Shown here: positions 44,690 to 63,956 of the stretch, piece by piece
How the letters are laid out: every line of letters begins with the position of its first letter
Position numbering within the stretch: position 1 is the first letter of the stretch
Assembly: GCF_027923385.1 (NCBI RefSeq)
Contig: NZ_BSEC01000007.1
Location: forward strand, 1 to 64,000
From: Methylocystis echinoides
GTDB lineage: Bacteria > Pseudomonadota > Alphaproteobacteria > Rhizobiales > Beijerinckiaceae
Direction: 5' to 3'
Length of the DNA stretch: 64,000 nucleotides
Made by a program: the position numbers and the translations under genes
The notes under the pieces: generated by a model
Seen by the model: the letters and a program-made list of their open reading frames with translations, nothing else
Databases searched by the model: none
Told to the model about the DNA's origin: nothing

Positions 44690-45604
44690 CTATGTTGCGC
44701 GTTGCGCGCGGGCTAAAGCCTGCCTGGACATCTCGCGTGACGTGTCGCGAGCTTGCGCTACCTGATCCTTGTTTTTTAGGACGATCTGTTGCTTTAGCGG
44801 GTCGAGTGCCCCTCCGGGCACATCGAGATTGTATTCGTTGATGAGATAGAATGCCAAGCTTAGACGAATCGGCATGGTCAAGGCGTTGTCGACCATGTTG
44901 TATTCAACGACGACCGCCTTCTGTCGCTCGGGTGTCAGTTCAGGATTTGGAATTATGACGAGATCAATTAAATGATTCCATTCATAATCTAAGGAGAAGT
45001 CGACTTCTGCTTCGCCGGAAACAGAGGTGCTTCCGATTCGACTGAGGTGGTAGTCCCGAAAATCATTATGTTCGCGCGACCACGCCCTGACGTACCAGCG
45101 GCCAGCACTGTGCGCGAGTGCGTGAGGTGCGATGTTTCGGGCGCCATGGGGTGCACCCGTCATGGATTGATACGCGATCTCGATTTCCTGCTTCAGACGA
45201 ATGGCGTCGAGCACCCCCAATAGGATCGCCGGCTCGGTGTTGCGTCTCGGCAATGAGACGACCTCGTACGACGGGAGACCGTCGAACCAAGTCTCATCCT
45301 TGGTCATCCATCCATTCTTGAGCGCGACCATTCTGAGGAGGTGTCGGTCCGCGCTGTTGGCGGTGAAGACTGGGCGGAACGAGGGAAGCCTCGTGTAACG
45401 CTTCAGCGCGACGTCATAATCCATGTTGCCCGGAGCGAGCTGTTGATAAAGTTGCACGTCGCCGGATGCCTGCTGAACCGAAATCCCGAAGAGCTTCGCG
45501 ATGTCCGGGCGGCTCACTCGGCCTTCCCAAAACAATCTAAAGTCAATGAACTCAAGGCGTTGCCTTACGTTCCACTTGAGTATCTGTTCCGACTCGTCTG
45601 CCAT
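44690..45604 (-). CDS. capW: CapW/BrxR-type WYL-domain transcriptional regulator
   Basis: 304 aa. N-terminal winged-helix region (VRQRLEFIDFRLFWEGRVSR, PDIAKLFGISVQQASGDVQLY), a WYL domain (IAPHALAHSAGRWYVRAWSRE, YHLSRIGSTSVSG) and a C-terminal extension. CapW and BrxR are defence-island repressors of this plan. It is divergent from the CBASS operon with 175 bp between, the usual position, and is followed by the MNT-like gene. Confidence 0.9.
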   Translation of the reverse strand: MADESEQILKWNVRQRLEFIDFRLFWEGRVSRPDIAKLFGISVQQASGDVQLYQQLAPGNMDYDVALKRYTRLPSFRPVFTANSADRHLLRMVALKNGWMTKDETWFDGLPSYEVVSLPRRNTEPAILLGVLDAIRLKQEIEIAYQSMTGAPHGARNIAPHALAHSAGRWYVRAWSREHNDFRDYHLSRIGSTSVSGEAEVDFSLDYEWNHLIDLVIIPNPELTPERQKAVVVEYNMVDNALTMPIRLSLAFYLINEYNLDVPGGALDPLKQQIVLKNKDQVAQARDTSREMSRQALARAQRAT

Positions 45605-45652
45605 GCCACCATCCTACTTTTTTTGATTTGTAGCAGCAATCGCTCAAATAAG

Positions 45653-45681
45653 TTGACGTGTTTTTCAGGCTAGGGTAAAGA
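45653..45681 (+). promoter_or_regulatory. sigma-70-like promoter of the CBASS operon
   Basis: TTGACG at 45653-45658, 17-bp spacer, TAAAGA at 45676-45681, about 100 bp before the CD-NTase start. The surrounding 45605-45700 stretch is AT-rich and should also hold the CapW operator; a clear palindrome was not seen. Confidence 0.45.
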
Positions 45682-45779
45682 AATTGGAAACGGTGCCGTC
45701 GCGGTTTGGATTAACCAGATCGACGCCGACGACCGACGAAGAGCGAGCCTCCGACGAATATTCCGACGGGAACTGATTG

Positions 45780-46973
45780 ATGTACCACGATAGAAATATG
45801 CTCGCCCGTTTTCAGGTCTTCACTCTCCTCGAGAGGATCTGCCAAGAGCTTGATTTGACCGAGACGCAGCATGAACAGGCGAAAAAGAGCTACGAGGCCG
45901 TCGGCGAATGGCTGGCGGCTGCGTCCGATCCGCTGCTCGTCGGGATGGCGATCCGCCCGCAGGGGTCAATGGCGCTTCGGACGGCTGTCAAGCCGATTTC
46001 GGAGTGCGAGCACGACGTTGATCTCATCAGTTTCGCGCCTCGGTACTCGGTGGCGGCTCCGCCCGGAATCTTGAAGCAAGCCATTGGAGCACGTCTCAAG
46101 GACAACGGGACCTACGCGCGCCTATTGGAGGAAAAGCCGAGGTGCTGGCGGCTGAACTACGCCGGTGAGTTCCACTTGGACATTACGCCGTCGATCCGCA
46201 ATCCCGACTGCGTCAACGGAGGAGAACTGGTTCCGGAGAAAGGGAAAAGCGCATGGAAAGCGACCAATCCTGAAGGATACAGGAAGCTTTTCGAACGTCG
46301 CGGTGCGCTTCAACCGCGCCTGCGCCTGACCGAACTTGCGAAAGACTCGGTACGCGCCCGTGCCGACAGCGTCGCTCCGCTCCCTGAGCGCAGCGTGTTC
46401 AAGAGCGTCCTGTGCCGCATCGTGCAGATCTGCAAAAGGCATCGTGACGTCTATTTTTCGGAAAGAGATTCGTCGCTCGCGCCCATCTCGGTTATCATCA
46501 CCACGCTTCTCTCGCGTAGCTATGAAGCCTGCGTAAAAGACACCATTTACGACAGCGAATTCGACGTCCTGCTGGATGTGATCACGCGCATGCGGGATCA
46601 CATTAATCAGTTCGGCTCGCCCGAGAGGCCGTGGATCATCACGAACGAGACGACGAAAGGGGAGAATTTCGCCGAAAAATGGAGCGCCAACCCTGCGCTC
46701 CCGGTAGCTTTCTTTGAATGGCACAAGCGCGCTGTAGCGGACATCGTGTCCTTGAAAGCAGTAGAGGGGCTGGATCGAATCCAAGAGTCGCTGACTCGGT
46801 CGTTCGGAAGCAGGCCGGTGAAGAAGGCTATGGACGCCTTCACGCAGGATGTTTCTAAGGCGCGCAATGCTGGGGTCCTGTCGGTGGCGCCGGTCGCGGG
46901 GCTGACGAGCAACACCGCCGCCGCGCACGGTGGAACCTCCGTGAAGAAGAATACTTTCTACGGAGGCCGGTAA
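45780..46973 (+). CDS. CBASS cyclic-oligonucleotide synthase (CD-NTase)
   Basis: 397 aa from the ATG at 45780 (a TTG at 45777 is also in frame). Active-site motifs: PQGSMALRTAVKP (GS at 62-63), EHDVDLISF (Asp79, Asp81) and FHLDITPSI (Asp134). These define a cGAS/DncV-like enzyme that makes a cyclic nucleotide after phage infection. The C-terminus ends KKNTFYGGR, like the Gly-ending tails to which CBASS E2 proteins attach. First gene of the operon; its stop abuts the E2 start (TAAATG). Clade and product are not decided by eye. Confidence 0.9.
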   Translation: MYHDRNMLARFQVFTLLERICQELDLTETQHEQAKKSYEAVGEWLAAASDPLLVGMAIRPQGSMALRTAVKPISECEHDVDLISFAPRYSVAAPPGILKQAIGARLKDNGTYARLLEEKPRCWRLNYAGEFHLDITPSIRNPDCVNGGELVPEKGKSAWKATNPEGYRKLFERRGALQPRLRLTELAKDSVRARADSVAPLPERSVFKSVLCRIVQICKRHRDVYFSERDSSLAPISVIITTLLSRSYEACVKDTIYDSEFDVLLDVITRMRDHINQFGSPERPWIITNETTKGENFAEKWSANPALPVAFFEWHKRAVADIVSLKAVEGLDRIQESLTRSFGSRPVKKAMDAFTQDVSKARNAGVLSVAPVAGLTSNTAAAHGGTSVKKNTFYGGR

Positions 46974-47429
46974 ATGCGTCCGGGCCTTCGTCCTACCCTG
47001 AGTCCTAGCCAACAACTTCTTTTGCTTAGGGCCAGCAAGACTTTCTCCGGATCCGGCGAAGTCCGGAGAGAACGCTTGGTATGGACTTGCGAGATAGCGC
47101 CTACGGCCATGAGCAGGTCATATCGCCTCCAGATCGAATACTCCCGCGGCGGCGCGCCGCGAGTTTACGTTGTCGCTCCCAATCTAGTGGAACTCGCTGG
47201 CGGCCAACCGCTTCCTCACGTTTACGGCGCTGACGAGGAACAAAGACTCTGCGTGTACCATCCGCGTTTGAGGCAGTGGAGCGCCAATTTGGCGTTGGTT
47301 GCGACCGTCCTGCCTTGGGCCGTGCTTTGGCTTTTCTATTTCGAGGATTGGCTGCGCACTGGCGTCTGGAACGGCGGCGGAGAACATCCCGATGGCCAAA
47401 AAGACGATTACGACGAGGCTCCTGAATAA
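46974..47429 (+). CDS. cap2: CBASS E2-like protein (type II-short Cap2)
   Basis: 151 aa with the UBC-like pattern of stand-alone bacterial E2 proteins: YRLQIEYSRGGAPRVYVVAP, LPHVYGADEEQRLCVYHP with the probable catalytic Cys93, then LPWAVLWLFYFEDWLRTGVW and GGGEHPD. No E1 or JAB gene is present, which defines the short type II layout. In studied systems the E2 conjugates or holds the CD-NTase C-terminus to set its activity. Directly coupled to the CD-NTase gene. Confidence 0.85.
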   Translation: MRPGLRPTLSPSQQLLLLRASKTFSGSGEVRRERLVWTCEIAPTAMSRSYRLQIEYSRGGAPRVYVVAPNLVELAGGQPLPHVYGADEEQRLCVYHPRLRQWSANLALVATVLPWAVLWLFYFEDWLRTGVWNGGGEHPDGQKDDYDEAPE

Positions 47430-47488
47430 AAAAGTCCGCAGTCGAGCGGCGAATGGTCCGCGGCAACCATCCCGACAAGGAACAATGA

Positions 47489-48589
47489 ATGTCCTACGAA
47501 CAACCCGTCCTCCCGCGGTCTGCGGGCTCAATCCCTGCGCGCCGCGTGCAACAGAGTTGGCCGGCTGACCGGGACTTTCGCATCCTCTCAATCGATGGAG
47601 GGGGCATCCGCGGGGTGTTCCCCGCCGGCGTACTTGCGGATTTTGAGGCGACCTTGGGTGCCGACGCGTCCATCGTGGAATACTTCGACCTCGTCGCCGG
47701 CACTTCTACGGGCGGAATATTGGCTCTCGGATTAGGGGCCGGCAAGTCGGCCCGTGAGATTCGCGATCTTTACATGCACAGGGGACCGCAGATTTTCCCG
47801 CCCGTGTGGGACAACGCTGCGGGGCGGATATGGAAGTTTATCCGCAACAACTTCATCAATGCGGCCTTTCACCGATACAACCGGCTCGCATTGGAGCGCA
47901 CTCTTCAGGAGTTCCTGGGCGAAAAGCTTTTGGGGGAATCGAAAGTTCGTCATGTGATCCCATCATTTGATGGGCGCTTCAGCGAGGTCTTCCTGTTCAA
48001 GACTCGGCATCACGCAGATTACGAGCAGGATTGGCGGCGTAAGATGGTCGAGGTTGCGCTCGCGACGTCAGCGGCGCCGACGATTTACCGAGCGCTCGAC
48101 ACGGGCGGATTCAGACTGATCGACGGCGGCGTATGGGCTAACAATCCGCTGATGCTCGCCGTTATCGAGGCGATGGTCTGCTATGACGTGCCGCCGGAGC
48201 GCATCAAAATCCTGAGCATAGGCTGTGGACAGGATCCATTTCGCGTGACGAGGCGAATGGCGGTCGGGGGACTCTTTCATTGGCGTGGCGTGATCGGGGC
48301 AGCGATGCACGCTCAGTCTCTTGCCGCGACAAACCAAGCCAGACTGCTCCTTGGGCCGCAAAACGTCGTTCGTATCGACCCCGCGATCACCGGGGCGCCG
48401 ATCGAACTCGACGACTATCGACGAGCGATGGACGAGCTGCTGCCGGCAGTGGCCGGTGCTGTAGCTGCTCATCGTGATCGGGTTTGCTCGATGTTCCTTG
48501 CCCAGAAAGTCGCACCCTTTGTTCCTGTGCCGACGCCGTCAGGCATGGACGTGCGCCGCGCCATCGATGAGGCCGCGGTAGCTGGCTGA
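47489..48589 (+). CDS. capV: CapV-type patatin-like phospholipase effector
   Basis: 366 aa. Patatin motifs in order: oxyanion loop SIDGGGIRGVFPAGVL (about 34-49), nucleophile elbow GTSTGG with Ser73, and IDGGVWANNPL carrying the catalytic Asp. CapV proteins degrade membrane phospholipid when bound by the cyclic nucleotide, killing the infected cell. Last gene of the CBASS operon, 59 bp after cap2. The outer ISL3 element starts 110 bp downstream, leaving the operon whole. Confidence 0.92.
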   Translation: MSYEQPVLPRSAGSIPARRVQQSWPADRDFRILSIDGGGIRGVFPAGVLADFEATLGADASIVEYFDLVAGTSTGGILALGLGAGKSAREIRDLYMHRGPQIFPPVWDNAAGRIWKFIRNNFINAAFHRYNRLALERTLQEFLGEKLLGESKVRHVIPSFDGRFSEVFLFKTRHHADYEQDWRRKMVEVALATSAAPTIYRALDTGGFRLIDGGVWANNPLMLAVIEAMVCYDVPPERIKILSIGCGQDPFRVTRRMAVGGLFHWRGVIGAAMHAQSLAATNQARLLLGPQNVVRIDPAITGAPIELDDYRRAMDELLPAVAGAVAAHRDRVCSMFLAQKVAPFVPVPTPSGMDVRRAIDEAAVAG

Positions 48590-54728: not shown

Positions 54729-55310
54729 CTAGCAGCCACTGTTGTGATGGGCGTGATTAAATTTTTTTCTATACCACAGCCAAAAACCGCCAAAGCCGCT
54801 GATGGATAGGAATGAAGTTGCGATTAATTCACGGATAGACGTCTCGCCAACCGTGAACCCGAAAGTTGCATTGTATTCTTTTGATCCATTTTGATCCTTC
54901 GCTCTAATAAGAGCAATATAGCTCCCTCGTTCCAAGAAATTGTGTTCGTATGTAAGCGTCCCGGTGCTGAATTTTGCGGGAGGGAGATATGCCTCAAGTG
55001 ATCTTTCATCTAATACCATCTCGCTGTCCATGTTTCCAGTAGCCTTAATTAGACGAAGCTCAATGGTCATATCACGCAGCTCATCTTGCATAGAGTCGAT
55101 TACGATTATCGTCGGACCAGTTTCCGGAATTTCCTCGCAAAATTGATTTCGAGACTTTAGCGGCTGGTAGAATGTAAAGGTAAGGACATCAGGACCTATC
55201 TTTGTAACGCATTGCTCTATCTGCTGGATCGGGCCCCCCGTTACCTGCTGAGCTTCGACCGGCGTTTGAAGCCAGATTGCGGCGACGAAGGCGAGTAGCA
55301 ATCTCATCAT
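54729..55310 (-). CDS. secreted, C-terminally anchored protein, possibly PmoD/AmoD-like
   Basis: 193 aa from the ATG at 55310. Sec signal (LLLAFVAAIWLQTPVEA), a periplasmic domain of about 140 residues, one membrane helix near the C-end (ELIATSFLSISGFGGFWLWY) and a His-containing tail. Conserved-looking segments are FCEEIPETGPTIIVIDSM, ELRDMTIELRLIK and TGTLTYEHNFLERGSYIALI, with Cys and several Met residues. Topology matches PmoD/AmoD proteins linked to copper handling for methane and ammonia monooxygenases, but I cannot prove membership. It starts 8 bp after the ftsH stop, in the pmoC-ftsH unit. Confidence 0.6.
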   Translation of the reverse strand: MMRLLLAFVAAIWLQTPVEAQQVTGGPIQQIEQCVTKIGPDVLTFTFYQPLKSRNQFCEEIPETGPTIIVIDSMQDELRDMTIELRLIKATGNMDSEMVLDERSLEAYLPPAKFSTGTLTYEHNFLERGSYIALIRAKDQNGSKEYNATFGFTVGETSIRELIATSFLSISGFGGFWLWYRKKFNHAHHNSGC

Positions 55311-55317
55311 CGTTCTT

Positions 55318-57306
<1,989 letters not shown>

Positions 57307-57522: not shown

Positions 57523-58296
57523 TTACTCGCCAGTAAGAAGGGCGACGCCTTCCTTGCCAAGGAGGCGATGGACGTTCATCAGAAGCTGCAACACGACGCC
57601 GAAAACGCCGAGCGCCATCCATCCGAAGAACACGAAGCCCCAGTGCAGCGGCGCCACGAACAGTTCTTCCATGAACCAGAAGGTATGGCCCCACTCGTTC
57701 AGGCCAACGTTCGGAATGATCATGAACGGGCCAATCGACACGATCAGATATGCGAGCGAGTAGCCCTTCGAGAAGTACGGAATCCGTGTCTTCGCATGGA
57801 AGAAGCAGCCCACTGCCAGGATCGAGTAGATCGGGTAGCTCATGTAGAATTCGATGATATGCGACGGGGTGAAGTCGGTGTCGCGAATCACCGTCATATG
57901 CCAAGTGCCGTCTTGCTCGGTGAAGAAGGAGGCACCCCAATAAATGGCTGCCGCGTAGACAACGAGCCATTTCACGTTGTCGACGATGGCGCGCATCTCC
58001 TGACGCGGCGTCACGGTCGACATGTCACGAACACGAGTCTTCCACAGATAGCCAGCGAGGGCTAACCCGGACATGAGCTCCAGAGGAATTTCCGTCCAAA
58101 GAATGCTCATCCAGTAGGTTTGGAATTCGGGCGCAAAAGAGTCAAGACCAGCACGCCAGCCGTAGATCTGTTCGTAAATTCGAACGATCAGATAAAAGCT
58201 GTTGAGGAGCGCAAGTCCAATCCAAAGTCCCCTGAGGTCAACGATCGGCTTGGCTTCGTCAGCCACGCCCACCGCAGTCTGCGTTGATATGCTCAT
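57523..58296 (-). CDS. pmoC: particulate methane monooxygenase subunit C
   Basis: 257 aa from the ATG at 58296 (GGAG 9 bp before; the longer frame is not accepted), normal length for PmoC. Several membrane helices. Copper-site residues are present: Asp129, His133 and His146 (DGTWH, TPSH), equal to Asp156/His160/His173 of M. capsulatus, and Asn200, His204, His218 (NEWGH, LHWGF), equal to Asn227/His231/His245. PmoC is part of the membrane complex oxidising methane to methanol. No pmoA or pmoB follows, so it must work with subunits encoded elsewhere or serve under stress. Confidence 0.95.
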   Translation of the reverse strand: MSISTQTAVGVADEAKPIVDLRGLWIGLALLNSFYLIVRIYEQIYGWRAGLDSFAPEFQTYWMSILWTEIPLELMSGLALAGYLWKTRVRDMSTVTPRQEMRAIVDNVKWLVVYAAAIYWGASFFTEQDGTWHMTVIRDTDFTPSHIIEFYMSYPIYSILAVGCFFHAKTRIPYFSKGYSLAYLIVSIGPFMIIPNVGLNEWGHTFWFMEELFVAPLHWGFVFFGWMALGVFGVVLQLLMNVHRLLGKEGVALLTGE

Positions 58297-58384
58297 TGTT
58301 GATCTCCGTTTTCCCGGGGGGAAACGTTTCCTCCGGTGACGCAAATGTCCTCGACTTTGCAATTGATTGCAGCTAGTCTGGTTT

Positions 58385-58400
58385 GACAATAATGATGCCA
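58385..58400 (-). promoter_or_regulatory. sigma-54-like promoter candidate for pmoC
   Basis: On the minus strand TGGCATCATTATTGTC matches the -24/-12 pattern TGGCAC-N5-TTGC except GT in place of GC. It would give a leader of about 77 nt to the pmoC ATG. Weak by itself. Confidence 0.3.
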
Positions 58401-58402
58401 AG

Positions 58403-58443
58403 TCTGCCAGCGCATCTGCCAGATTCGATACAAAGTTTGCCAA
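58403..58443. promoter_or_regulatory. direct repeats in the pmoC-regulator intergenic region
   Basis: TCTGCCAG at 58403 and 58415 and TTTGCCAA at 58436: starts 12 and 21 bp apart, roughly one and two helical turns, as for AraC-family binding sites. They lie just before the GlxA-like gene and behind the pmoC promoter candidate. Confidence 0.5.
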
Positions 58444-58458
58444 TCATTGGGGCGTGCG

Positions 58459-59454
58459 ATGGATGTCGTAGTTCTTGGCTACCGCAACTGCATCGGATCG
58501 GCGTTTCTTGGCGCTTCTGACTTGCTCACGATGAGCCTCCGGATGCTCGCAAAGTCGACCAAGCCGCTCCCATTCGAGGTTGTCACCGCCAGCTTCAGCG
58601 GTGAGCCATTCCAAGACGGAAACAAAAGGCGCCTAGAGGTCGCCAAAGGCCTCGAGTCGATCAAATCCTCCGGTGCGATCATAGTTCCGGGATACATCTG
58701 TGATGGAACAAATCGACTCGATCTCTCACCTGAGATCGGCGCAATCGCAGCATGGTTGAGGCATCAACACGCACTTGGAGCCACCGTGTGCGCCTCTTGC
58801 AACGGAGTTTTGGTTCTTGGACAAGCTGGCCTTCTAGACGGAAGGCGGTGCACAACCACGTGGTGGCGTCACGACGATTTAAAAGGCCATTTTCCTCGCG
58901 CACAGGTTGTCTGGGGCGCGTCTCTTATCGAAGATAATCGTATCGTCACCGCCGGCGGTCCGTTGTCGTGGATCGATCTTTCGCTACGGGTCATTCGCTC
59001 CCTTTGCGGCGATGATGCCGCGAAAATGGCGGCAGATTTCACGGTTGTCGATACCACGCCGTCCACTCAGACGGTTTATATTCCTCCTGGTCATTTAGCC
59101 GCGTCCAACCAGTTCTTGCTGGAAGCAGAGCGCGCCATTCGCCAGGCTGGCGACGCGCCGCTAACGGCTCGGCAACTCGCCGTCGCACTTAATTCCTCAG
59201 AAAGAACTCTCCATAGGCGTCTAAAAGAAATTTCTGGAGAGACGCCCAAAAGTTTTATCGATCGGGTGCGCTTTGAGAAGGCGCGGACGTTGCTTGAGAC
59301 GACAGCACACTCAATCAAGGAACTGGCGCAGACATCAGGATATTCGGATCAAGCCAGCTTTCGTCGCGCTTTTCTGCGGTATTCAGGAATGACCCCCGGC
59401 GCCTATCGGACATGGATAAAGGCCCGAAGTGGGGGCGCGCCGAAAACACACTAA
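58459..59454 (+). CDS. GlxA-type (DJ-1/PfpI plus AraC) transcriptional regulator
   Basis: 331 aa from the ATG at 58459. N-terminal DJ-1/PfpI-like domain (DVVVLGYRNCIGSAFLGASD, GAIIVPGYICDG, GATVCASCNGVLVLGQAGLL with Cys at the elbow), C-terminal AraC double helix-turn-helix (LTARQLAVALNSSERTLHRRL and HSIKELAQTSGYSDQASFRRAF). Divergent from pmoC, with direct repeats between, so it probably controls the pmoC block and itself. Ligand unknown. Confidence 0.9.
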   Translation: MDVVVLGYRNCIGSAFLGASDLLTMSLRMLAKSTKPLPFEVVTASFSGEPFQDGNKRRLEVAKGLESIKSSGAIIVPGYICDGTNRLDLSPEIGAIAAWLRHQHALGATVCASCNGVLVLGQAGLLDGRRCTTTWWRHDDLKGHFPRAQVVWGASLIEDNRIVTAGGPLSWIDLSLRVIRSLCGDDAAKMAADFTVVDTTPSTQTVYIPPGHLAASNQFLLEAERAIRQAGDAPLTARQLAVALNSSERTLHRRLKEISGETPKSFIDRVRFEKARTLLETTAHSIKELAQTSGYSDQASFRRAFLRYSGMTPGAYRTWIKARSGGAPKTH

Positions 59455-59506
59455 AGAGTCGAATCTTATAGCTACTAGAAGAAGCACATCAGTCGGAGCA
59501 AACGTA

Positions 59507-60169
59507 GTGTCTGTTCGAATAGACGCCTTTGATGCCTTCGGGACTATATTTGACGTGCAATCCGCGACCCTCAGTTATCCAGACGTCCTCGGGCACAAAG
59601 CGGATCAGCTTGCTTTTCTCTGGCGCGCGAAGCAGCTCGAATATACCTGGGTCTCAAACAGCCTCGGGCGTTACGAGCCGTTCGACGTGCTGACCGCCAG
59701 AGCATTGGATTTTGCTCTTGAAACTCTCGGCTTTGGCGCGAACCATTCCATTCGAACGGAACTTCTCAAAGCGTATGTACGGCTGGCAATATTTCCTGAC
59801 GTACTCCCAGCACTCGAGCGCTTGAAATCAGCTGATCGCAAGGTGGTGATATTTAGCAATGCTCCCCGACGGATGCTAAAGGACTCGTTGGCGGGCTCGG
59901 AGATCGGTCATATGATCGACGAAGTCGTTTCGGTTGAGCAAGCGATGGTCTTTAAGCCAGACCCAAGAGCTTATGCTCTCCTGGATCGATGGCGAAAGGA
60001 TCCGAGTGAGCTTGTATTTTATTCATCAAACCGATGGGATATTGCGGGGGCGGCGTCGTTTGGGCTGCGGGCCATTTGGATTAATCGAAGACGCAGCGCG
60101 GATGAGTATCTCGATTTAACTCCAGCTGGTGTCTCCGAGACGATGATTGGCGCTGTCTCAATGACGTAA
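59507..60169 (+). CDS. haloacid dehalogenase, type II family
   Basis: 220 aa from a GTG at 59507 (CGGAG 9 bp before). HAD motifs: IDAFDAFGTIFDV with nucleophile Asp9, IFSNAPRRML, KPDPRAYALL with the conserved Lys, and FYSSNRWDIAGAASFGL. The SSNxWD segment is typical of (S)-2-haloacid dehalogenases, which split C-halogen bonds in short haloacids. It follows the GlxA-like gene by 52 bp and may be cotranscribed. Substrate not proven. Confidence 0.87.
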   Translation: MSVRIDAFDAFGTIFDVQSATLSYPDVLGHKADQLAFLWRAKQLEYTWVSNSLGRYEPFDVLTARALDFALETLGFGANHSIRTELLKAYVRLAIFPDVLPALERLKSADRKVVIFSNAPRRMLKDSLAGSEIGHMIDEVVSVEQAMVFKPDPRAYALLDRWRKDPSELVFYSSNRWDIAGAASFGLRAIWINRRRSADEYLDLTPAGVSETMIGAVSMT

Positions 60170-60584: not shown

Positions 60585-61025
60585 ATGGATCATTCCATGC
60601 TTGAAGCCATGCATGAAGGCAGAACGTATCAGCGGGTGGAGGTGATCACCGGGAGCCGGCGTCGGCGCAGTTGGGCGTCGGCAGAGAAGGCCCGGATCGT
60701 CGCCGAGAGCCTGGCGCCGAACGCGAACATATCGGATGTCGCTCGACGCAACGGCGTGAGCCGTGGACTATTGACGGTCTGGCGCCGACAGACCCGGGAG
60801 GCGCTAAAGACGCCCGACCATGTATCGCTGTTCGCAGCGGTGCGGTTGAGAGGTGACGAGGAACGGCGGGGCAACGCCGCCGCGATTGACGAGGAGAACG
60901 AGGCGGCCTCAGTCGCGTCCTGCGCGATCGAGATTTCGATGGGGGATGCGACGATCCGTGTCCCGAAGGGCGCGGACGGCGCGACGGTCGATGCAGTGAT
61001 TTCGGCGCTGCGTCGCTCGCGATGA
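60585..61025 (+). CDS. tnpA: IS66 accessory protein TnpA
   Basis: 146 aa. Helix-turn-helix of the IS66 OrfA type (SWASAEKARIVAESLAPNA, ISDVARRNGVSRGLLTVWRR) and a C-terminal domain ending DGATVDAVISALRRSR. Needed with TnpB for transposition. Overlaps tnpB by 4 bp. Identical to copy 2 at 63516-63956. Confidence 0.9.
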   Translation: MDHSMLEAMHEGRTYQRVEVITGSRRRRSWASAEKARIVAESLAPNANISDVARRNGVSRGLLTVWRRQTREALKTPDHVSLFAAVRLRGDEERRGNAAAIDEENEAASVASCAIEISMGDATIRVPKGADGATVDAVISALRRSR

Positions 61026-63515: not shown

Positions 63516-63956
63516 ATGGATCATTCCATGCTTGAAGCCATGCATGAAGGCAGAACGTATCAGCGGGTGGAGGTGATCACCGGGAGCCGGCGTCGGCGCA
63601 GTTGGGCGTCGGCAGAGAAGGCCCGGATCGTCGCCGAGAGCCTGGCGCCGAACGCGAACATATCGGATGTCGCTCGACGCAACGGCGTGAGCCGTGGACT
63701 ATTGACGGTCTGGCGCCGACAGACCCGGGAGGCGCTAAAGACGCCCGACCATGTATCGCTGTTCGCAGCGGTGCGGTTGAGAGGTGACGAGGAACGGCGG
63801 GGCAACGCCGCCGCGATTGACGAGGAGAACGAGGCGGCCTCAGTCGCGTCCTGCGCGATCGAGATTTCGATGGGGGATGCGACGATCCGTGTCCCGAAGG
63901 GCGCGGACGGCGCGACGGTCGATGCAGTGATTTCGGCGCTGCGTCGCTCGCGATGA
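63516..63956 (+). CDS. tnpA: IS66 accessory protein TnpA, copy 2
   Basis: 146 aa, identical in sequence to the product of 60585-61025, with the same SWASAEKARIVAESLAPNA helix-turn-helix. Overlaps the start of a second tnpB by 4 bp. Confidence 0.9.
   Translation: MDHSMLEAMHEGRTYQRVEVITGSRRRRSWASAEKARIVAESLAPNANISDVARRNGVSRGLLTVWRRQTREALKTPDHVSLFAAVRLRGDEERRGNAAAIDEENEAASVASCAIEISMGDATIRVPKGADGATVDAVISALRRSR

What the first reader, a model, noticed from the sequence alone, without database searches (positions are those of the whole stretch)
57523..59454. Lone pmoC with ftsH, a PmoD-like candidate and a divergent regulator on mobile DNA
pmoC has all six copper-ligand positions intact but lacks pmoA and pmoB. 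It is followed by a membrane protease gene and a secreted anchored protein, and faces a GlxA-type regulator. Lone pmoC/amoC copies are known to matter in methanotrophs and nitrifiers, but this four-gene grouping on a conjugative backbone suggests a portable module for replacing or repairing the PmoC subunit under stress.
Basis: partly seen in the sequence, partly recalled or inferred. Interest (0 to 1): 0.75.

Follow-up and report, generated by a model that had tools for sequence, protein, structure and literature searches.

The report
Plasmid-borne pMMO subunit-C supply module
A plasmid of a methane-eating Methylocystis-type bacterium carries a spare gene for one subunit of the methane-oxidising enzyme next to a membrane protease gene, a copper-protein relative and its own regulator; related bacteria keep matching sets, and some viruses carry the same subunit gene together with a protease, which hints at an upkeep system for the enzyme.

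Summary
It is not a broken pmoCAB copy (79% nt, 86% aa to the operon PmoC; separate PmoC clade). The complete set occurs at 5 loci in 4 genomes. Already in print: lone pmoC with ftsH (Methylocystis SC2, Rockwell), PmoD near lone pmoC, plasmid and phage pmoC. Not found in my searches: (1) a GlxA regulator group at these loci, with TGGC direct repeats 21 bp apart in 17 of 19 divergent promoters and 0 of 59 pmoCAB promoters; (2) a LOV photosensor fused to the regulator of the chromosomal ftsH-pmoC version, 9 of 9 diverging from ftsH; (3) FtsH in 9 of 19 alpha-type pmoC phage records. Best reading: regulated PmoC supply plus PmoC-directed proteolysis; every functional step is inferred. 'Stress' is unproven, and proteomics of a plasmid PmoC in SC2 points the other way. 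The PmoD lacks the CuA ligands.

The parts
57523..58296 (-). pmoC, lone class-B PmoC isoform, 257 aa, all six copper-ligand positions kept
55318..57306 (-). ftsH, 662 aa membrane AAA+ zinc protease; catalytic parts nearly invariant, membrane/periplasmic part divergent
54729..55310 (-). pmoD paralogue (signal peptide and C-terminal TM read by eye); two cysteines kept, CuA Met and His replaced by Val and Thr
58459..59454 (+). GlxA-type AraC regulator (DJ-1/PfpI + HTH_18), 331 aa, divergent from pmoC
58385..58442 (-). predicted regulator operator: TGGC direct repeats (one pair 21 bp apart) and a TGTC in the pmoC/glxA intergenic region
59429..60169 (+). haloacid dehalogenase-type hydrolase ORF following the regulator; present at all 5 complete loci

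Best explanation
The module is a self-regulated PmoC supply-and-turnover cassette. The GlxA-type regulator binds TGGC direct repeats between the divergent genes (inferred) and switches on pmoC-ftsH-pmoD (inferred). The PmoC made enters pMMO in place of the operon PmoC (inferred). FtsH, with a diverged membrane/periplasmic recognition part, extracts and degrades unassembled, damaged or displaced PmoC (inferred). The membrane-anchored PmoD paralogue helps with copper handling or assembly without making a CuA site (inferred). Shown: gene content, conservation, clades, repeats in the promoter region, loss of the CuA ligands. Inferred: every functional step.
For: FtsH lies on the same strand within 1 kb of 10 of 39 lone pmoC loci in the genus, against 0 of 32 pmoA-bearing (operon) copies (Fisher p 0.0015, relatedness not corrected). 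The pairing arose at least twice: L123 of another genus cannot be joined to the Methylocystis pmoC-linked FtsH (AU p 7.7e-130). Methylocystis pmoC-linked FtsH, G215 apart, forms one clade away from housekeeping FtsH (100/100, 11 rows). The AAA and protease parts are 240/245 and 199/210 identical to the chromosomal pmoC-linked FtsH, the membrane/periplasmic part only 69/155. Class-A lone PmoC is aa-identical over the aligned length to operon PmoC in 6 of 8 genomes, as expected if it must fit the same enzyme. The regulators form one group, with a shared 21-bp-spaced repeat. FtsH occurs in 9 of 19 alpha-type pmoC phage records.
Against: No expression, binding or degradation data. Many GlxA-pmoC loci have no FtsH (L056, L061, L067, L072, L079, L099, L103 with flanks held), and L040-L042, L106 and the M. 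rosea plasmids keep only a stretch matching the FtsH C-terminal part. One lone PmoC without FtsH (G089, L063) is also identical to its operon copy, so that identity is not special to ftsH-linked copies. Three GlxA genes co-directional with pmoC (L107, L112, L211) show no 21-bp pair upstream of pmoC or of the regulator. Once phage rows are added the order of the FtsH groups is uncertain. In SC2 a plasmid-borne PmoC was high in normal medium and dropped at high ammonium. pmoC and ftsH are 216 bp apart; co-transcription is assumed (no terminator-like site lies between them, and no promoter-like site was found in the pmoC/glxA gap; both scans were at or below chance).
Confidence: 0.43

Rival explanations
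1. Isoform swap without repair: class-B PmoC is an alternative subunit that tunes pMMO (for example to ammonium, oxygen or copper supply). FtsH and PmoD only help its assembly or clear excess.
For: Class-B PmoC is a separate conserved clade (14 rows, SH-aLRT 97, quick tree), 82-87% identical to operon PmoC in the 9 pairs compared, often without FtsH. Plasmid PmoC3Ps in SC2 is abundant in standard medium and falls at high ammonium (its class was not checked).
Against: Does not explain the recurrent FtsH pairing nor why the lone class-A PmoC stays the same as the operon copy.
Confidence: 0.3
2. Folding sensor: lone PmoC plus FtsH senses whether pMMO is assembled properly (speculation of the SC2 genome authors).
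For: Proposed in PMC3794950; a regulator gene sits next to the pair.
Against: Lone PmoC keeps all copper-ligand positions, and class-A copies match the catalytic subunit residue for residue in 6 of 8 genomes, more than a sensor needs.
Confidence: 0.12
3. Plasmid or IS cargo with little function: a module captured between insertion sequences and kept by chance.
For: Flanked by IS66- and IS21-type ORFs (names recalled); some of the carrying plasmids share a partition block.
Against: Open pmoC, ftsH, pmoD and regulator frames at 5 loci, repeats in the promoter region, and chromosomal counterparts across the genus. The PLSDB table lists no ftsH on the M. iwaonis plasmids, but the frame is open for 659 aa.
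Confidence: 0.1

Closest known systems
Monocistronic pmoC with ftsH in Methylocystis sp. SC2 and Rockwell (PMC3794950; passages read)
   Same: Lone pmoC next to ftsH: ftsH upstream of a pmoC identical to the operon copy in SC2, ftsH downstream (the window's order) of two of four lone pmoC in Rockwell; a further lone pmoC lies on an SC2 plasmid
   Different: The passages read mention no GlxA regulator, operator, LOV domain or PmoD at these loci. I did not see the Rockwell loci, so a Rockwell copy may be of the window's type
PmoD/AmoD copper proteins, CxnC class (PMC6189053; sections 10-11 and passages read)
   Same: Two invariant cysteines and a periplasmic domain; PmoD genes near lone pmoC are reported
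   Different: The paper reports Cx7MxHxnC or Cx8MHxnC PmoDs near some lone pmoC; this one has neither motif
pmoC-phages (PMC7674155; passages read)
   Same: Mobile DNA carrying pmoC alone, without pmoAB
   Different: The main text names no FtsH, protease or peptidase (supplements not seen); here FtsH was found in 9 of 19 alpha-type pmoC phage records
Photosystem II D1-FtsH repair cycle (PMC4949578; abstract read)
   Same: Working analogy only: FtsH removes one damaged membrane subunit and new copies replace it
   Different: PmoC and D1 are not known to be related (recalled); no degradation shown here
AmoC3 stress subunit of Nitrosomonas europaea (Berube and Stahl 2012; seen only as a citation; not held)
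   Same: Lone divergent C subunit with a proposed special role
   Different: No FtsH, PmoD or GlxA partner known to me; not searched

Membership tests
PmoC/AmoC (PF04896) | Full-length match over the curated cut-off | tested here: met
   349 bits against a cut-off of 26.7
PmoC/AmoC (PF04896) | Six CuC/CuD ligand positions kept | tested here: met
   alignment to chains 4phz and 3rfr; which residues are ligands is recalled
FtsH | AAA with Walker A, HExxH zinc site, M41 domain, N-terminal FtsH_ext | tested here: met
PmoD | Two invariant cysteines (CxnC) and homology to 6cpd | tested here: met
PmoD | C-terminal transmembrane helix and signal peptide | tested here: inconclusive
   read by eye; no prediction run
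PmoD, CuA-forming subclass | Cx7MxHxnC motif | tested here: not met
   Met to Val and His to Thr; the 10 other PmoDs beside lone pmoC of this genus and the named contigs (L039-L042, L077, L078, L096, L106, L107, L112) also lack Met and His at those places
GlxA-type AraC regulator | DJ-1/PfpI domain followed by HTH_18 | tested here: met
LOV photoreceptor (chromosomal counterpart only) | Cysteine motif GRNCRFL and match to solved LOV domains | tested here: met
   9 of 9 sequences; best hits are blue-light photoreceptor chains, tested with the L028 domain
LOV photoreceptor (chromosomal counterpart only) | Flavin binding and light response | not testable with these tools
   needs purified protein
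Repair cycle like PSII D1-FtsH | FtsH degrades the subunit that the module supplies | not testable with these tools
   needs a degradation assay

The most novel reading that the evidence does not exclude
Methylocystis runs a pMMO upkeep cycle that works like the photosystem II D1-FtsH cycle: PmoC is the sacrificial subunit, a PmoC-adapted FtsH removes it, and lone pmoC genes resupply it. On the chromosome a LOV-GlxA regulator couples the cycle to blue light or flavin redox state; plasmids and phages carry portable versions.
Probability: 0.25. Interest if true: 0.9.

Novelty: new variant of a known kind. Interest (0 to 1): 0.62.

Why it matters
Lone pmoC/amoC genes have no agreed role that I know of. 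A regulator group tied to them, repeats in their promoters, the LOV fusion and phage FtsH turn a loose speculation into tests that a cultured Methylocystis can answer: what induces the module, whether FtsH turns over PmoC, and whether damage to pMMO is repaired by subunit exchange. pMMO is a main enzyme of the biological methane sink, so its upkeep is of general interest.

Tried and rejected
Recent fragment of pmoCAB: rejected; nt identity to the operon copy 563/714, no operon flanks, separate PmoC clade.

All pmoC-linked FtsH of one origin: adding L123 is rejected (AU p 7.7e-130; with L087 as well 1.5e-101), adding L087 alone is not (p 0.10) (the groups were named after the tree was seen).

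Phage FtsH derived from the pmoC-linked FtsH: the first tree hinted so, but holding the phage rows with the housekeeping rows gave a slightly higher likelihood, p 0.59; left open.

pmoC-FtsH association in phages picked by DNA polymerase: 12 records of 30 kb or more: both 3, pmoC only 2, FtsH only 1, neither 6; not significant (p 0.22). FtsH phages without pmoC are common: 13 of 16 records of 30 kb or more that came from the FtsH scan and were not in the pmoC set. FtsH is therefore not bound to pmoC in phages.

Operator controls that were not clean: a pair in the opposite orientation (GCCA) upstream of 6 of 18 other lone pmoC loci; pairs upstream of 2 of 9 other GlxA genes (L077_843 and L210, the latter not next to pmoC); none upstream of the co-directional cases L107, L112, L211. 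The pmoCAB control used exact TGGC/GCCA only. Seven further divergent regions (L041, L042, L078, L099, L106, L173, L176) were left out of the count as near-copies and not examined.

pmoC in annotated phage records (INPHARED): no match. SC2 plasmids by accession: not held. No fold prediction and no protein-database search was run.

Full report
What is there. On the minus strand lie pmoC (57523-58296), ftsH (55318-57306) and pmoD (54729-55310, starting 7 nt after the ftsH stop); divergent on the plus strand is a GlxA-type regulator (58459-59454), followed by a haloacid dehalogenase-type ORF (59429-60169). PmoC matches PF04896 over its full length, and the ligand-bearing blocks align to solved pMMO PmoC without change at the ligand places (which residues are ligands is recalled). 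FtsH has the family's domains and motifs. The third protein is a real PmoD homologue (6cpd, E 2.7e-21) that keeps both cysteines but has Val and Thr where the CuA ligands Met49 and His51 stand; it falls in the CxnC class, whose one tested member bound copper without forming a CuA site (PMC6189053 section 11).

The genome. The window is the first 64 kb of a 97-kb contig of a 5.3-Mb genome, in the same genus as G177, whose contigs C4 and C5 have the lengths of Methylocystis iwaonis plasmids pSS37A-Re-3 and -4 (83,290 and 80,096 bp). It has 7 pmoC and 4 pmoA: two pmoCAB operons, two pxm-type A-B-C operons, the window copy and two lone chromosomal copies. The plasmid has T4SS, relaxase and ParA/ParB-type genes. 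The best matches of the T4SS part among plasmids are Bradyrhizobium records (38% of the query, 76% identity); a partition block is shared with the M. iwaonis plasmids (89%).

Census. Of 248 genomes drawn from the family, 32 have a pmoC match. Of the 123 matches outside the own genome I fetched 113 neighbourhoods and left out 10 short or partial matches. With 7 own loci (and window) and four contigs out of 13 loci of a regulator scan (the other nine were not methanotroph contigs), tblastn of the module genes covered 124 pmoC loci: 59 with pmoA in the stretch (operons, pxm included) and 65 without ('lone'; a few may be contig-end cases). In the genus: 39 lone loci and 32 operon copies. FtsH of over 400 aligned residues on the same strand within 1 kb: 10 of 39 lone, 0 of 32 operon. 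A GlxA relative within 3.5 kb: 19 of 39 lone. A PmoD on the same strand within 3.5 kb: 7 of 39 lone, 9 of 32 operon. Two more linked cases fall outside that count: L028, where 5.3 kb including a transposase-like ORF (name recalled) splits ftsH from pmoC, and G017 contig C4, where pmoC ends within 190 bp of the contig end and ftsH-pmoD begin at base 62, as on a circular plasmid (circularity inferred).

Three kinds of lone pmoC in the genus. Class A: ftsH-pmoC on the large contig, followed by a DUF1269 gene in 7 of 8; PmoC is aa-identical over the aligned length to the operon copy in 6 of 8 genomes and differs by 1 or 2 residues in the other two. A further lone copy without FtsH (G089) is identical as well. 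Class B: pmoC next to a GlxA regulator; PmoC forms one clade of 14 rows (SH-aLRT 97, quick tree), 82-87% identical to operon PmoC in the 9 pairs compared. The complete set regulator | pmoC-ftsH-pmoD stands at 5 loci in 4 genomes: window, G017:C4, both M. iwaonis plasmids, and a Hyphomicrobiales MAG contig, L039. The PLSDB table shows no ftsH on the M. iwaonis plasmids, but the frame is open for 659 aa. M. rosea plasmids and contigs L040-L042 and L106 have regulator | pmoC-pmoD with only a stretch matching the FtsH C-terminal part. Seven other loci have the regulator and pmoC without FtsH or PmoD, three have PmoD without FtsH. Class C: strongly diverged lone PmoC, 47-56% to the window copy. The block C7:54.75-60.2 is shared as a unit by the complete loci.

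FtsH. Methylocystis pmoC-linked FtsH, class A except G215 plus class B, forms one clade (100/100, 11 rows) apart from the housekeeping copies of the same genomes. The pmoC-linked FtsH of another genus (L123) is a separate origin (AU p 7.7e-130); G215 cannot be decided (p 0.10). With phage rows added, the order of classes A and B and the housekeeping copies is not settled. The window FtsH differs from the class-A copy mainly in its first 155 residues (69/155 identical, against 240/245 and 199/210 in the AAA and protease parts) and in the tail (6/52), which would fit a changed recognition part (inference).

Regulators and operator. The GlxA genes at these loci form a group with subclades that largely follow the locus type; GlxA genes not next to pmoC (L036, L041, L055, L077, L106) fall inside it as well, and more distant relatives are common on other plasmids. 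A search with the chromosomal regulator in the 248 genomes gave 9 full-length GlxA-LOV proteins, all in this genus (16 genomes listed; at most 6 candidates per genome were scored). All 9 diverge from ftsH at 169-183 bp (some ftsH are cut by contig or locus ends), and all 9 have the GRNCRFL motif; the domain of L028 matches solved LOV photoreceptors. Among 19 divergent intergenic regions (12 facing pmoC, 7 of the 9 facing ftsH; seven near-copies left out), TGGC pairs exactly 21 bp apart occur in 17, and in 19 if TGTC is allowed (the shuffles tested TGGC only). The best spacing in 300 shuffled sets reached at most 3 of 19. The regions are related, so this is not a probability; but the window regulator and the LOV type are only 50% identical. 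None of 59 pmoCAB upstream regions (300 bp) has an exact pair, nor do the class-A loci without the regulator (L068, L076, L087). Not clean: 6 of 18 other lone pmoC loci have a pair in the opposite orientation, and the three loci with a co-directional regulator have none.

Phages. A viral-contig scan with PmoC gave 110 relatives, of which 80 were kept. 11 of 80 loci carry FtsH on the same strand downstream of pmoC (one cut by the contig end; three of the 11, L224, L226 and L227, look like one phage), with an Hsp20 and a peptidase gene between them in L226. No PmoD or GlxA match was found in the 80. In the 27 pmoC records of 30 kb or more, FtsH occurs in 9 of 19 alpha-type records (PmoC over 80% to the window's) and 0 of 8 of the other type (58-61%) (Fisher p 0.026, phage kinship not corrected). 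In the 12 records that hold both, match starts lie 3-4 kb apart in 5 and 10-37 kb apart in 7. In INPHARED 244 of 50,697 records have some match to phage FtsH, 23 over 80% or more of its length (some look like bacterial contamination). Against: FtsH phages without pmoC are common (13 of 16), and the polymerase-picked set shows no significant association (p 0.22).

Literature. pmoC-ftsH adjacency in SC2 and Rockwell and a plasmid pmoC in SC2 are published (PMC3794950, passages). Plasmid PmoC3Ps in SC2 had an LFQ of 5.8e7 at 1 mM ammonium, against 1.8e8 for PmoC1, and fell by 4.8 log2 units at 50 mM (PMC9600857, passages). A lone pmoC of M. bryophila rose (LFC 3.9) under ambient against low O2 (PMC12319191, passages); its class was not determined here. 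Searches for pmoC with ftsH, with phage, for lone pmoC under six names, pMMO with FtsH, LOV with methane monooxygenase, and blue light with methanotrophs listed nothing that, by title, abstract start or the passages read, reports the regulator, the LOV link or phage FtsH with pmoC. Most listed papers were not opened, and only open-licence papers are held.

Verdict. A real, conserved, plasmid-borne variant of a known but unexplained pairing. The turnover reading fits best; the stress reading is unproven.

Noticed in passing
L028:13789-15255 (chromosome C1): GlxA-type regulator fused to a LOV domain, divergent from ftsH; 9 full-length copies found in the genus
   Followed up: yes
L226, L240, L245, L251, L268 and other viral contigs: Phage pmoC loci with FtsH downstream; an Hsp20 and a peptidase gene lie between in L226
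   Followed up: partly
window 44690-48589: WYL-domain regulator, SMODS/CD-NTase and patatin-like phospholipase genes: looks like a CBASS-type defence set on the plasmid (name recalled)
   Followed up: no
contig C7:67869-68819 (L036:7873-8823): Second GlxA-type regulator on the plasmid; its counterpart on M. rosea and one M. iwaonis plasmid lies next to an antibiotic biosynthesis monooxygenase gene
   Followed up: partly
L028:15972-17513: Autoinducer synthase and LuxR-type regulator close to the chromosomal GlxA-LOV gene
   Followed up: no
C1:3518333 and C3:126418: Two pxm-type A-B-C operons in one genome, on contigs C1 and C3
   Followed up: no
window 60585-61025 and 63516-63956: Two 146-aa ORFs with the same translation, looking like repeated copies of an IS66-type element beside the module (name recalled)
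   Followed up: no
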